Source: Pseudomonadota bacterium (GTDB taxonomy: Bacteria > Pseudomonadota > Gammaproteobacteria > GCA-001735895). From it: a stretch of DNA of 33,904 nt. The DNA lies in the NCBI GenBank assembly GCA_022563685.1, contig JADFMY010000022.1:1-33904 (forward strand), given 5' to 3'. Of the stretch, positions 28,201 to 33,904 are shown one piece after another. Below the pieces are notes generated by a model. It was not told where the DNA came from and did not search any database. It saw only the letters and a program-made list of their open reading frames with translations. Position 1 is the stretch's first letter. Every line of letters begins with the position of its first letter. The position numbers and the translations under genes were made by a program.

Positions 28201-28920
28201 TCAGGCATCCTGTTTTATTACGGTGAGTAGACCTGAAATATCGGGTAATACCAAATCTGCAATTCCCTCCAGGTCGGCCCGGGTGCTGGCGCCGGTGAGG
28301 ACCCCGACACAAAGACCTGCATGGGCATTTTTTCCCATTTCGATATCGTGGCGATTGTCGCCGACGACGATCACTTCGGCAGGTTCGAGCGACATTGCCT
28401 GGCAAAATGCCAGTACCATGCCGGCGTCTGGTTTGACCCCATGGCCACTGTCGTAGCCGCAGAGGAAATCGAAAGCGGAAACCACGTCGAATGATTGCAG
28501 TGTATTATGGATGCCCTGGTAGCTATCGCTGGTTGCAACGCCGAGCTTGAGCCCGGCCAGTTTAAGTTTCTGCAGCGTAGTTTTGAGGCCATTGACCGGG
28601 GTCGAATGCAGCGCACCCTGCTGCTGGAATATATGGTTTAATCGGGCACAGATAGCCTCGACCTGTACATTTTTTTTGCCACCGCGTAATTGTTCGGCCC
28701 AGGCGATGCCGATTTCGCGATTAGTCCCGGCAGCTAGCAGCGAGCCACCGATAACGCGCCCGGTATCCAGGTCGTATCCGTGCTGAGCCAGCAGTTCGTC
28801 GGCCAGTTTTTGATCGTTGTCGCTGAATTCGAGCGCGGCGAATCGATAAACCGGTAACCAGGTCGAGTGGAAATCGATCAGGGTTCCATCCTTGTCGAAA
28901 ACGATGCCCTTGTATTTCAT
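28201..28920 (-). CDS. HAD family hydrolase (phosphoglycolate phosphatase-like)
   Basis: GIVFDKDGTLIDFHSTW; VATSDSYQGIHNTL; VIVVGDNRHDIEMGKNAHAG. Confidence 0.9.
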   Translation of the reverse strand: MKYKGIVFDKDGTLIDFHSTWLPVYRFAALEFSDNDQKLADELLAQHGYDLDTGRVIGGSLLAAGTNREIGIAWAEQLRGGKKNVQVEAICARLNHIFQQQGALHSTPVNGLKTTLQKLKLAGLKLGVATSDSYQGIHNTLQSFDVVSAFDFLCGYDSGHGVKPDAGMVLAFCQAMSLEPAEVIVVGDNRHDIEMGKNAHAGLCVGVLTGASTRADLEGIADLVLPDISGLLTVIKQDA

Positions 28921-28948
28921 GGGTAATTTCTATTTCTCATGAACAGGC

Positions 28949-31402
28949 CTAGCATAGAATTTTTGCCCGCTCGGGGTCATAAGCCGCCCCTTTGATTAGC
29001 GAAGCAGAGCTACGTTTGCCAAATGCCTCGATCTCGAAGTCACCTGACCGGAGCAATTCCACTGGAAGATACCCGAGCACCAGGCTGTTTCCGATGGAAT
29101 ATCCGAAGTTTCCGCTAGTGGTCTGCGAAACCACTCGACCATCGGCAAAGATGGCCTCGCCGCCAAACACCGGCAGAGGATCGTCTAAAACCAGGCAGGC
29201 GAGTTTTTGCTGAACGCCATCTTGCCTGATTTTGGCCAGCGCCTGGGCGCCGATAAAATCGCCCTTGTCCCAGTCGATAAGAAACTGCAGCCCGGCTTCA
29301 AAGGGATTGTAATCGGGGGTGATATCGACGCCCCACGCGAGATAGCGCTTTTCCAGTCGCAGAGAGTCGATCGCCCGGTAGCCAATATTGATAATGCCAA
29401 ATTCTTCGCCGGCCTGTTGCAGTAGCTCGTAGACATACTGTAGGTATTCCGACGGGATGTAGAGCTCCCATCCGAGCTCGCCGATATAGGTGACCCGGTA
29501 GGCAAGCGCCGGTGCATATCCAATTCTGATATCCCTGGTGGCCATAAACGGAAAGGCATCGTGGCTCAGGTCTTCGTCGCAAACCTTCTGCAATACCTGG
29601 CGCGCGAGTGGGCCAGCGAGGTTTATCACACCATGCGCCGAGGTAATATCGCGTACCGTCACCTGGCCGGATTGGCTGGAATTGCCCTGTCGATCGAGGT
29701 AGCTGATCAGCTGAGTGTCGATCCAGTGGCGGTCACGCACACCCAAACCGGAACCAGTGATCAGCCAAAAGCAGTCCTCCGAACGCCGGATGATGGTGAC
29801 ATCGGCCTCGATGCCGCCACGTTGATTGCACAGTTGCGTATAGGTGGCCCCGCCTGGTTGCTTGTCGACATTGGCCACCGCGAGATATTGTAAAAACTCG
29901 CAGGCCCGGGGTCCGCTGATCTCGAATTTGGTGAACGAGGACATATCGATGAGGACCACGCCTTCGCGTGCGGCCAGATGCTCGCGGCCAACGGTAATGT
30001 CCTGCTGTGGCCGGTCGAACCCGAGGACGTCCTGCTGCGGGATATCACCCTGGGCGAACCAGTTGGCTCGCTCCCAGCCGAACTTCGATCCGAATACGGC
30101 GCCCTGATCTTTCAGGGTTTGATACAGCGGACTACGGCGCACGCCACGGGCCGATTCCAGTTCCTCTCCCGGCCAGTGGATGGCGTAGTACTTGCTATAG
30201 CTTTCGACCGCCCGGTCATGCAGAAACCGCTGACCGGCGTGCAGGGGCCCGAAGCGGCGGATGTCAAATGGCCACAGATCGAGCCCAGGGTCGCCTTCGA
30301 GAATCCAGTTCGCTACTGCCTTGCCAGCCCCACCCGATGCGGCGATACCGGAAGTGAATGCGCAAGCGGCAAAAAAATTGCTCAAGCCCGGAACGGGTCC
30401 CATGATGGGTTCTCCGTCGGGTGAGATGGGTATGGGGCCGTTGACGATAGTACGCATACCGAGTTCGGCGAGGATGGGGATACGTCGCATCGCCGGTTCG
30501 AAAAACTCTGCCAGGCGGTCCATATCGCCATCAAACAGATGACGCTCATTTTCCCACGGGAAACCTTCCTTAGGATTGACGGTATTGGTTTGCCTTTCCC
30601 ACCCGCCGATAGCCAGGGCACCCGGTTCCGGTTTGGCATAGAATCCACCGTCCGGATCGCGTAGCGCCGGTAGGCCAGCAGGAATCTGGTCGGATTTCTC
30701 GGTCACCAGGTATTGATGCTCGACCACACCGGCAGGTATTTCTACGCCCGCCATCCAGCCAATCTGGCGCGCCCAGAGTCCCGCGGCATTGACCACAGTT
30801 TCTACTTCAATGCTGCCCTGATCGGTCACTACATGGGTGATGCGATCACCGTCGCGCAGCAGGTCTTTTGCCATCACGCCTTCGAAGATCTGGCCTCCGT
30901 TGGCCCGGATGCCTTTAGCATAAGCCTGGGTCAGACTATTCGGGTCGATGTACCCGTCCTCCGGGATAAAAGCCGCACCGACCAGATCATCGATTTCGAT
31001 GAGTGGGTATAAGTCACGCGCCTCGCTCGGCGTTAACAGGTTCATCTCAAACCCAACTGCCTGTGCGGCGGAATAGGACTTGAGCAATTCCTTCCAGCGG
31101 TTTTCACTTTGTGCAAGCCTGAGGCTTCCCACTTTGCGCCAGTCGGGATCCTGGCCGGTTTCTGCGGCCAGAGTGTCGAACAGTTTCACGCTATCGCTCA
31201 TCAGGCTCATCAGGTTTTGCTGCGAGCGGAATTGCCCGACCAGCCCGGCCGCGTGCCAGGTAGCGCCCTCGGTCAGATGTGACTTTTCAAGCAGCACGAC
31301 ATCCTCCTCGCCGGATCGGGTCAGGTGAAAAGCAATGCTGGTGCCAATCACACCGCCACCGATGATGACGATGCGTGCGCTGGTCGGAAATGTTGCCGTC
31401 AT
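28949..31402 (-). CDS. Dimethylglycine/sarcosine dehydrogenase-like FAD protein with C-terminal GcvT-type folate-binding domain
   Basis: IVIIGGGVIGTSIAFHLTRSG...GATWHAAGLVGQFRSQQNL; C-terminal GcvT region YRVTYIGELGWELYIPSEYLQYVYELL. Confidence 0.9.
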   Translation of the reverse strand: MTATFPTSARIVIIGGGVIGTSIAFHLTRSGEEDVVLLEKSHLTEGATWHAAGLVGQFRSQQNLMSLMSDSVKLFDTLAAETGQDPDWRKVGSLRLAQSENRWKELLKSYSAAQAVGFEMNLLTPSEARDLYPLIEIDDLVGAAFIPEDGYIDPNSLTQAYAKGIRANGGQIFEGVMAKDLLRDGDRITHVVTDQGSIEVETVVNAAGLWARQIGWMAGVEIPAGVVEHQYLVTEKSDQIPAGLPALRDPDGGFYAKPEPGALAIGGWERQTNTVNPKEGFPWENERHLFDGDMDRLAEFFEPAMRRIPILAELGMRTIVNGPIPISPDGEPIMGPVPGLSNFFAACAFTSGIAASGGAGKAVANWILEGDPGLDLWPFDIRRFGPLHAGQRFLHDRAVESYSKYYAIHWPGEELESARGVRRSPLYQTLKDQGAVFGSKFGWERANWFAQGDIPQQDVLGFDRPQQDITVGREHLAAREGVVLIDMSSFTKFEISGPRACEFLQYLAVANVDKQPGGATYTQLCNQRGGIEADVTIIRRSEDCFWLITGSGLGVRDRHWIDTQLISYLDRQGNSSQSGQVTVRDITSAHGVINLAGPLARQVLQKVCDEDLSHDAFPFMATRDIRIGYAPALAYRVTYIGELGWELYIPSEYLQYVYELLQQAGEEFGIINIGYRAIDSLRLEKRYLAWGVDITPDYNPFEAGLQFLIDWDKGDFIGAQALAKIRQDGVQQKLACLVLDDPLPVFGGEAIFADGRVVSQTTSGNFGYSIGNSLVLGYLPVELLRSGDFEIEAFGKRSSASLIKGAAYDPERAKILC

Positions 31403-31433
31403 GGTTCAGTCCTGGTGGGTAGATTTCGTTCGT

Positions 31434-32954: not shown

Positions 32955-33041
32955 CGCAGCTGTATCCGGGAGCTCGTCATTCGTGTGGGAACTTTAGGTA
33001 GCCCCGTAGCTTGCGTCAAACAATAAATGCTGTCATTATCT

Positions 33042-33056
33042 ATAAGTAAATCTTAT
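33042..33056. promoter_or_regulatory. Candidate LysR-type (T-N11-A) box ATAAG-TAAAT-CTTAT
   Basis: Perfect 5-bp arms, 5-bp spacer, in the divergent mttB/lysR intergenic region. Confidence 0.6.
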
Positions 33057-33070
33057 CCAAAAATGAGCGC

Positions 33071-33904
33071 TTGCGACGTCCACGGCTCAATATTCTACGA
33101 ACCTTCGAGGCCGCTGGTCGCTACTTAAGTTTTTCCCTGGCCGCAGACGATCTCAAGGTGTCACAGGCCGCAGTCAGCCAGCAGATGCGTCAGTTGGAGG
33201 CCTATCTGAAAACCCCCCTGTTTGTCAGGCATCACCGCCGGTTATCCCTGACCAGTACCGGCCAGGCCTACCTGGAAGCCGTACACGAAGCACTGGATCG
33301 GCTCGATTCGGTTACCGATCGGTTGTTCCCGGGCAGACAAAATCAGACAGTGACTCTGCGTTGTACTTCGGTCGTTGCGATACTTTGGCTGGCGCCACAA
33401 CTCGGATCCCTTCAAAAGCGCCATCCCAACATCGATCTGCGCATCAATACCCTCGATCAAGGCTATGACAATCAAAAATCCCCCACAACAGATCTGGAAA
33501 TTTTCATCCAGGGGGAAGCTGCGATCGACCCCTATGCGCACAAACTTTTAACCTCGACAATAACGCCGGTATGCTCGCCAAAACTGTTTTCGAAACGTCA
33601 GCGACTATCCAAACCAGCTGAGGTGCTTACGCATGACCTGATCCATGTGCTTGGCTACGACGACGACTGGCACCGGTGGTTTCGCAGGTATCGGCTGGAT
33701 GAAATTGACATACCGCGTGGATTATCCGTTGACGGATCGTTGATCGCTATCGAGGCCGCGCAGCGTGGTGATGGCATTATGCTGGGCAGACGCCCATTTA
33801 TTGACCGCTACCTGCAATCTGGAGAGTTGGTAGAGGTATTTGAAAAGCCATTCCACCTCTATGCGAATTACTATTTACGGCGACCACCCCGCTCTACCGT
33901 CCGC
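33071..33904 (+). CDS. LysR-family transcriptional regulator, 3' end cut by window edge (TTG start likely)
   Basis: Own translation: LRRPRLNILRTFEAAGRYLSFSLAADDLKVSQAAVSQQMRQLEAYLKTPLFVRHHRRLSLTSTGQAYLEAV...; not in supplied ORF list. Confidence 0.88.
   Translation, partial: MRRPRLNILRTFEAAGRYLSFSLAADDLKVSQAAVSQQMRQLEAYLKTPLFVRHHRRLSLTSTGQAYLEAVHEALDRLDSVTDRLFPGRQNQTVTLRCTSVVAILWLAPQLGSLQKRHPNIDLRINTLDQGYDNQKSPTTDLEIFIQGEAAIDPYAHKLLTSTITPVCSPKLFSKRQRLSKPAEVLTHDLIHVLGYDDDWHRWFRRYRLDEIDIPRGLSVDGSLIAIEAAQRGDGIMLGRRPFIDRYLQSGELVEVFEKPFHLYANYYLRRPPRSTVR

What the first reader, a model, noticed from the sequence alone, without database searches (positions are those of the whole stretch)
28201..33904. 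Non-Pyl MttB methyltransferase + DMGDH-like operon converging on the Hdr-MetVF operon: proposed betaine-type demethylation module
Seen: mttB-like, DMGDH-like and HAD genes lie on the minus strand with ~30-bp gaps, end-to-end with the Hdr-MetVF operon. Established: non-Pyl MttB homologues such as MtgB demethylate glycine betaine to a corrinoid protein, giving dimethylglycine; DMGDH passes a C1 unit to THF. Inference: MttB yields methyl-THF that MetVF-Hdr oxidises, while DMGDH feeds methylene-THF directly. No corrinoid protein or MtgA is visible here and they would have to be encoded elsewhere.
Basis: partly seen in the sequence, partly recalled or inferred. Interest (0 to 1): 0.82.

Follow-up and report, generated by a model that had tools for sequence, protein, structure and literature searches.

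The report
LysR-controlled MttB–DMGDH demethylation cassette
A marine, probably sponge-associated, bacterium carries a widespread two-gene cassette that probably strips methyl groups from a methylated amine using vitamin B12 and a flavin enzyme; the chemistry is known, but the substrate is probably not glycine betaine, and the neighbouring Hdr-MetVF genes are there by a local insertion.

Summary
A non-pyrrolysine MttB, a full-length DMGDH-like flavoprotein and a HAD gene lie on the minus strand (gaps 31 and 28 bp) and converge on an Hdr-MetVF operon. The missing partners exist: contig C159 of the same genome carries corrinoid protein, MtgA/MtgD-like methyltransferase, RACo activase, MetF2-MetV2 and DUF1638. 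This is the aerobic MtgBCD module published for Ruegeria pomeroyi (PNAS 2025).

Two parts of the interpretation weaken. (1) Hdr-MetVF is not a conserved partner: 0 of 41 other proteobacterial MttB loci have it nearby, the closest syntenic genome lacks it at this spot, and only 4 of 32 genus genomes carry it. (2) Glycine betaine is unlikely for this MttB: it lies outside the clade holding DhMtgB and lacks all four predicted betaine-binding residues. Paralogue C31 keeps all four.

New here: LysR–MttB–DMGDH is a conserved cassette (DMGDH next to MttB in 29/34 loci, divergent LysR in 26/36). Its intergenic operator, ATAAGnTTnACTTAT, is conserved from Gamma- to Alphaproteobacteria. The HAD belongs with a neighbouring phosphonate operon (TmpB–TmpA–HAD), not the cassette. 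Best reading: a two-step N-demethylation cassette of unknown substrate that feeds folate.

The parts
31434..32954 (-). MttB-superfamily methyltransferase (non-Pyl), own clade outside MtgB
   Evidence: PF06253 E=1.2e-74; PDB hits DhMtgB 2qne/9yce E~1e-50; tree places it outside the DhMtgB clade, 0/4 betaine residues
28949..31402 (-). DMGDH/SARDH-type flavoprotein with C-terminal folate-binding GcvT domains
   Evidence: DAO+FAO_M+GCV_T+GCV_T_C; E=2e-165 to rat DMGDH, 39% identity; TWHAAG FAD-His and HQY motifs kept
33071..33904 (+). GcvA-type LysR regulator, divergent from mttB; 3' end cut by the contig end
   Evidence: HTH_1 + LysR_substrate, GcvA subfamily 236 bits; divergent LysR conserved in 26 of 36 testable loci
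33042..33056 (.). Conserved palindromic operator ATAAGTAAATCTTAT (T-N11-A, LysR type) between LysR and mttB
   Evidence: only match in the window, 0.01 expected; aligned in 27 intergenic regions; the extended form occurs in 42 fetched loci (many overlapping), all carrying this region
33010..33024 (.). Second conserved intergenic box CTTGCGTCAAACAAT (rev. comp. ATTGTTTGACGCAAG), candidate activation site
   Evidence: intergenic alignment of 27 regions
28201..28920 (-). HAD hydrolase; same transcription direction, but orthologous to the HAD of the genus TmpB-TmpA-HAD operon rather than part of the cassette
   Evidence: HAD families; next to the HD oxygenase in genomes with and without the cassette
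19909..28179 (+). Hdr-MetVF operon (hdrA with NfnB/GltD-like insert, mvhD, metV, metF, hdrCB); neighbour, not a conserved member
   Evidence: families; structure hits HdrA and NfnB-type chains; absent near MttB in 41 other loci

Best explanation
Genes 28949-32954 plus the divergent LysR form an autonomously regulated, two-step N-demethylation cassette. The MttB-clade enzyme moves one methyl group from a quaternary (or otherwise N-methylated) amine to the genome's single methylotrophic corrinoid protein (contig C159). The MtgD-like methyltransferase there passes the methyl to tetrahydrofolate, and RACo re-reduces the cobalt. The demethylated amine is then oxidatively demethylated by the DMGDH-like flavoprotein, whose folate domain captures the carbon as 5,10-methylene-THF. 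Methyl-THF is reoxidised by MetF2-MetV2 of C159 and perhaps also by Hdr-MetVF. The substrate is probably a methylated amine other than glycine betaine, which paralogues of the MtgB clade (C31, probably C52) more likely handle. The HAD gene and the Hdr-MetVF operon are neighbours, not parts. Shown: genes, families, partners in the genome, conserved pairing and operator, clade and residues. Inferred: every reaction step, the sharing of MtgC, the inducer and the substrate.
For: MttB and DMGDH-like are adjacent in 29 of 34 proteobacterial loci with room, and LysR is divergent in 26 of 36. The operator is conserved across Alpha- and Gammaproteobacteria and in this genome its palindrome is at background elsewhere. 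C159 holds RACo, MtgD-like, MetF2, MetV2, DUF1638 and MtgC. MtgC occurs in 31 of 32 genus genomes, including all 13 with this MttB. MttB paralogues C20 and C158 also sit directly beside DMGDH-like genes. The clade is distinct (100/100 support) and 0/4 DhMtgB betaine residues are kept, against 4/4 in C31 and the solved homologue 4YYC (residues from PMC6855144). The DMGDH catalytic motifs are intact. The parallel system is genetically proven in R. pomeroyi (PMC12478193).
Against: No biochemistry is known to me for this clade. The betaine residues come from docking, so their loss need not exclude glycine betaine. The DMGDH-like partner resembles true DMGDH well, which would fit betaine. MttB is not on the corrinoid contig, and MtgC is almost universal in the genus, so co-occurrence is uninformative. 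In five testable loci (L037, L041, L045, L054, L067) the DMGDH-like gene is not next to MttB.
Confidence: 0.6

Rival explanations
1. One reading: this MttB is a glycine betaine methyltransferase (MtgB) and the DMGDH-like enzyme takes the resulting dimethylglycine.
For: Closest solved relatives are DhMtgB structures; the partner is 39% identical to rat DMGDH; MtgBCD-based betaine use is proven in marine Rhodobacteraceae; in some relatives the cassette lies next to TmpB-family genes, whose product would be betaine.
Against: Outside the 100/100-supported clade of DhMtgB, the solved homologue 4YYC, C31 and C158; lacks all four predicted betaine residues across the whole clade; the genome has better MtgB candidates, C31 and probably C52.
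Confidence: 0.2
2. The cassette serves N-methylated aminophosphonates: it demethylates 2-trimethylaminoethylphosphonate or its hydroxylated or dimethyl products, alongside the TmpA/TmpB pathway.
For: HD oxygenase genes of the TmpB/PhnZ family lie within the fetched flanks of 6 of 41 loci in Alpha- and Gammaproteobacteria, in different arrangements; a PhnS2/T2/U2 aminoethylphosphonate transporter is adjacent in L062 and a partial one in L039; the window holds a PhnU2 remnant at 9399-9947 and the HAD of the Tmp operon.
Against: HD oxygenase is near-universal in the genus regardless of this MttB (17/19 without, 7/13 with), and the window's own genome has no TmpB hit. Most cassettes have no phosphonate gene nearby.
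Confidence: 0.1
3. Hdr-MetVF and MttB-DMGDH are one dedicated energy module in this lineage: Hdr-MetVF oxidises the methyl-THF from this MttB and couples it to NAD(P)+ or quinone.
For: Direct convergence here; all 4 Hdr-MetVF genomes of the genus also carry this MttB (p=0.02) and 3 of the 4 carry extra MtgC-like corrinoid proteins against 1 of 28 others (p=0.003); MetF, MetV and the HdrB cysteine motifs look intact.
Against: Adjacent in none of 41 other loci, nor in G004, G012 or G028 where the genes lie on different contigs; L046 has the same surroundings without it; the cassette's operator has no copy at this operon; convergent transcription excludes a common promoter.
Confidence: 0.1

Closest known systems
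MtgBCD/MetF2 glycine betaine demethylation module of Ruegeria pomeroyi DSS-3 (PMC12478193)
   Same: Aerobic marine proteobacterium; PF06253 protein, separate corrinoid protein, pterin-binding MtgD, MetF2, corrinoid activase and DUF1638; several PF06253 paralogues per genome
   Different: This MttB belongs to another clade than DhMtgB, lacks the predicted betaine residues, sits apart from mtgCD with its own LysR and operator, and is paired with a DMGDH-like gene
DhMtgB, glycine betaine:corrinoid methyltransferase of Desulfitobacterium (2QNE, 9YCE)
   Same: Same superfamily, non-Pyl, Leu at the Pyl position, about 29% identity
   Different: Y94, N199, R309 and H345 are not conserved (Ser, Ser, Gly, deletion); anaerobic system
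Mammalian dimethylglycine dehydrogenase (4PAB, 5L46)
   Same: Full domain order, covalent-FAD His motif, HQY motif, folate domain; 39% identity
   Different: Bacterial, encoded with a corrinoid-dependent methyltransferase; substrate unproven
MetVF-HdrABC-MvhD complex of Moorella-type acetogens
   Same: MetV, MetF, MvhD and HdrA, B and C all present in the neighbouring operon
   Different: HdrC-B fused, HdrA carries an NfnB/GltD-like insert, organism not known to be an acetogen
TmpA/TmpB trimethylaminoethylphosphonate pathway of Leisingera caerulea (PMC10574752)
   Same: The genus has TmpB-TmpA next to orthologues of the window's HAD gene; TmpA scores above the curated cut-off
   Different: TmpB homologues of the genus score below the TmpB equivalog cut-off and none was found in the window's own genome

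Membership tests
MttB superfamily (PF06253/COG5598), non-Pyl branch | PF06253 over the curated cut-off along the whole protein | tested here: met
   251.6 bits against cut-off 25, residues 4-465
MttB superfamily (PF06253/COG5598), non-Pyl branch | No pyrrolysine: no in-frame amber codon, another residue at the Pyl position | tested here: met
   Open frame of 506 codons; Leu aligned with Pyl of M. barkeri MttB
Glycine betaine methyltransferase MtgB | Groups with DhMtgB | tested here: not met
   Separate 100/100 clade; DhMtgB groups with 4YYC, C31 and C158
Glycine betaine methyltransferase MtgB | Predicted betaine-binding residues Y94, N199, R309, H345 | tested here: not met
   0/4 (Ser, Ser, Gly, deletion) in the window; clade members likewise (second position Ser, Ala, Pro or similar); C31 4/4; residues from PMC6855144
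Glycine betaine methyltransferase MtgB | Betaine:cob(I)alamin activity | not testable with these tools
   needs purified enzyme
MtgBCD aerobic demethylation module | Corrinoid protein, MtgD-like methyltransferase, activase and MetF2 in the genome | tested here: met
   All in one cluster on C159
MtgBCD aerobic demethylation module | These partners are clustered with this MttB | tested here: not met
   MttB on C183, the others on C159
DMGDH/SARDH-type flavoproteins | DAO + FAO_M + GCV_T + GCV_T_C with covalent-FAD His and folate domain | tested here: met
   Domains, TWHAAG and HQY motifs
DMGDH/SARDH-type flavoproteins | Dimethylglycine as substrate | not testable with these tools
   needs assay
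Moorella-type MetVF-Hdr-MvhD complex (neighbour) | Subunit set MetV, MetF, MvhD, HdrA, HdrB, HdrC with HdrB CCG motifs | tested here: met
   two CCG motifs and two 4Fe-4S motifs in HdrCB
Moorella-type MetVF-Hdr-MvhD complex (neighbour) | Conserved link to this MttB | tested here: not met
   0 of 41 other loci; other genus genomes on different contigs
TmpA/TmpB phosphonate operon (HAD gene) | TmpB in the window's genome | tested here: not met
   No hit with TIGR03276 in a 92% complete genome

The most novel reading that the evidence does not exclude
A separate, widespread clade of aerobic corrinoid-dependent demethylases (marine Alpha- and Gammaproteobacteria, with a sister group in Chloroflexota), each paired with its own folate-linked flavin demethylase and LysR operator, opens a methylated amine or aminophosphonate for which no corrinoid pathway is known in oxygen-respiring bacteria.
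Probability: 0.35. Interest if true: 0.72.

Novelty: new variant of a known kind. Interest (0 to 1): 0.45.

Why it matters
Methylated amines are major dissolved nitrogen compounds in the sea, and MttB paralogues outnumber known substrates. This cassette is common, has a ready regulatory handle (LysR plus operator) for finding its inducer, and warns against calling every PF06253 protein in aerobes a glycine betaine enzyme. It also gives a named, cultured test organism, Litoreibacter halocynthiae, whose orthologue is 70% identical.

Tried and rejected
Hdr-MetVF as a conserved functional partner: rejected as a dedicated partner after synteny and presence tests. HAD as a cassette member: rejected after finding the HD-TmpA-HAD operon in genomes without the cassette. 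Genome-level association of HD oxygenase with this MttB: tested, found inverse (7/13 against 17/19, p=0.04), so the phosphonate reading was lowered. Amber codon in the C52 paralogue as pyrrolysine: rejected, since it lies about 50 bp from a contig end and far from the Pyl position. Plasmid records: no match for MttB at E<=1e-60. Homarine catabolism as a known use of such a cassette: the paper (PMC13236597) is not held, so it could not be checked. Not run: structure prediction, because sequence homology already settled the fold family and a model would not settle the substrate.
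Full report
WHAT IS THERE. The window is contig C183 of a 2.99-Mb, 201-contig, 92% complete genome. On the minus strand lie mttB 31434-32954, a DMGDH-like gene 28949-31402 and a HAD gene 28201-28920, with gaps of 31 and 28 bp; they converge with 21 bp on hdrA-mvhD-metV-metF-hdrCB at 19909-28179. A GcvA-type LysR gene starts 116 bp from mttB in the opposite direction and is cut by the contig end.

THE PARTNERS EXIST. Seven PF06253 loci occur in the genome, one incomplete at a contig end. 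Corrinoid protein, RACo activase and an MtgA/MtgD-like pterin-binding methyltransferase each give one hit apart from those in MetH (C182) and what looks like FolP (C137), and all three lie on contig C159. That contig reads, on one strand: RACo, MtgD-like, MetF2, MetV2, 'virulence factor' domain, DUF1638, MtgC. The same parts, with MetF2, RamA and DUF1638, were shown by proteomics and knock-outs of mtgC and mtgD to serve glycine betaine demethylation in Ruegeria pomeroyi, and 'up to seven' PF06253 genes per genome were noted (PMC12478193). The general scheme is therefore already known.

THE CASSETTE. A scan of species genomes with this MttB gave 49 loci. In proteobacterial loci with room, a DMGDH-like gene directly follows in 29 of 34, and a divergent LysR of at least 45% identity precedes in 26 of 36. 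MttB identities are mostly 70-89% across Gamma- and Alphaproteobacteria, which is high. The 27 LysR-mttB intergenic regions align with a palindrome ATAAGnTTnACTTAT followed by ATtGTTTGac-GCAAG. In the window the palindrome (33042-33056) is the only match, with 0.01 expected. In the fetched loci the extended form was found in 42 loci, many of them overlapping copies of the same genomes, and all of them carry a LysR-mttB region. In the whole genome the loose palindrome occurs at four places, against five for the reversed control. This is what a LysR operator dedicated to one cassette would look like; binding itself is inferred. MttB paralogues C20 and C158 also stand next to DMGDH-like genes, so the pairing recurs.

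WHICH SUBSTRATE. A tree of 19 sequences puts this MttB in a 100/100-supported clade that also contains Chloroflexota members. DhMtgB, the solved homologue 4YYC, C31 and C158 form another 100/100 clade. The four residues predicted by docking to bind betaine in DhMtgB (Y94, N199, R309, H345; PMC6855144) are Ser, Ser, Gly and a deletion here, and none is restored in the other clade members examined. C31 and 4YYC keep all four, C158 keeps three (the solved chain is numbered one higher than the paper). Because the residues come from docking, this lowers but does not exclude betaine. The DMGDH-like partner keeps the FAD-His (TWHAAG) and HQY motifs and is 39% identical to rat DMGDH. I read the cassette as methyl removal by MttB followed by flavin demethylation of the product, with an unidentified amine.

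PHOSPHONATE NEIGHBOURS. HD oxygenases of the TmpB/PhnZ family lie in 6 of 41 proteobacterial loci, one above the TmpB equivalog cut-off (L030). An aminoethylphosphonate transporter flanks the cassette in L062, with part of one in L039. In genus genomes without the cassette the order HD, TmpA (434 bits, cut-off 400), HAD recurs. The window's HAD is an orthologue of that HAD, and a truncated PhnU2 permease lies at 9399-9947. But the HD gene is nearly universal in the genus (24/32) and less frequent in genomes with this MttB (7/13 against 17/19), and the window's genome has none. The HAD gene is best seen as a leftover neighbour, and the phosphonate substrate as a minority hypothesis.

HDR-METVF. 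It is present in 4 of 32 genus genomes and on other contigs than MttB in the other three. It was not found in any of 41 other MttB loci, 20 of which had at least 9 kb downstream. In L046 the same flanking genes (qor, ABC transporter) are present, but no Hdr-MetVF stands between them and the HAD. The adjacency is therefore lineage-specific. A looser link survives: all four Hdr-MetVF genomes carry this MttB (p=0.02) and three carry extra corrinoid proteins against one of 28 others (p=0.003). These p-values ignore shared ancestry and genome gaps. Hdr-MetVF may well oxidise methyl-THF in general, but C159 has its own MetF2-MetV2. HdrA with the NfnB-like insert has many full-length relatives, so it is not peculiar to this genome.

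LIMITS. Nearly all genomes are drafts; adjacency counts depend on flank length; I know of no assayed enzyme of this clade; the sharing of MtgC between paralogues is inferred from R. pomeroyi and Eubacterium (PMC12478193). That the host is sponge-associated is a guess from relatives' names and was not tested.

Noticed in passing
window 33876-33904: The contig end contains a 13-base exact match to the Illumina P5 adapter (TACGGCGACCACC), so the last residues of the LysR gene (LRRPPRSTVR) are probably adapter-derived.
   Followed up: yes
window 9399-9947: Truncated C-terminal third of a PhnU2 aminoethylphosphonate ABC permease (66% identity to L062 over residues 383-567), without PhnS2 or PhnT2 orthologues in the window: likely remnant of a lost transporter.
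   Followed up: partly
window 17387-19684: A gene that reads as selenide water dikinase (SelD) and a spore-photoproduct-lyase-like radical SAM gene directly precede the Hdr-MetVF operon and lie in the same inserted stretch.
   Followed up: no
window 19909-24537: HdrA is a double-HdrA protein with an inserted NfnB/GltD-like NAD(P)H domain (about residues 170-690); many 1,500-1,600-aa relatives exist, mostly unnamed.
   Followed up: partly
L113 5214-13810 (G012:C500): In genus member G012 the Hdr gene lies near genes that look like CofC and CofGH (F420 biosynthesis; from reading the sequence, not searched) and a MtaA/CmuA-like methyltransferase, a different context from the window.
   Followed up: no
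L046 14116-15441 and L124 5703-6995: A weakly URO-D/MtaA-like gene follows the MttB-DMGDH pair in two relatives; possible dedicated methyltransferase.
   Followed up: no
L005 2130-2182 (contig C52): A further MttB gene with Tyr at the first betaine position ends at a contig edge, with a TAG about 50 bp from the end; more likely a contig-end error than pyrrolysine.
   Followed up: partly
L059 2874-11437, L063: In Chloroflexota the MttB relatives stand near DMGDH-like, kinase-like and polyamine-type ABC transporter genes, and in L059 a GntI/thiamine-kinase-like gene: another lead to the substrate.
   Followed up: no
G028 C73/C59/C283 and G025 C333/C202/C796: Two genus members carry three extra MtgC-like corrinoid proteins each (44-49% identity), suggesting further B12 demethylation systems.
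   Followed up: no
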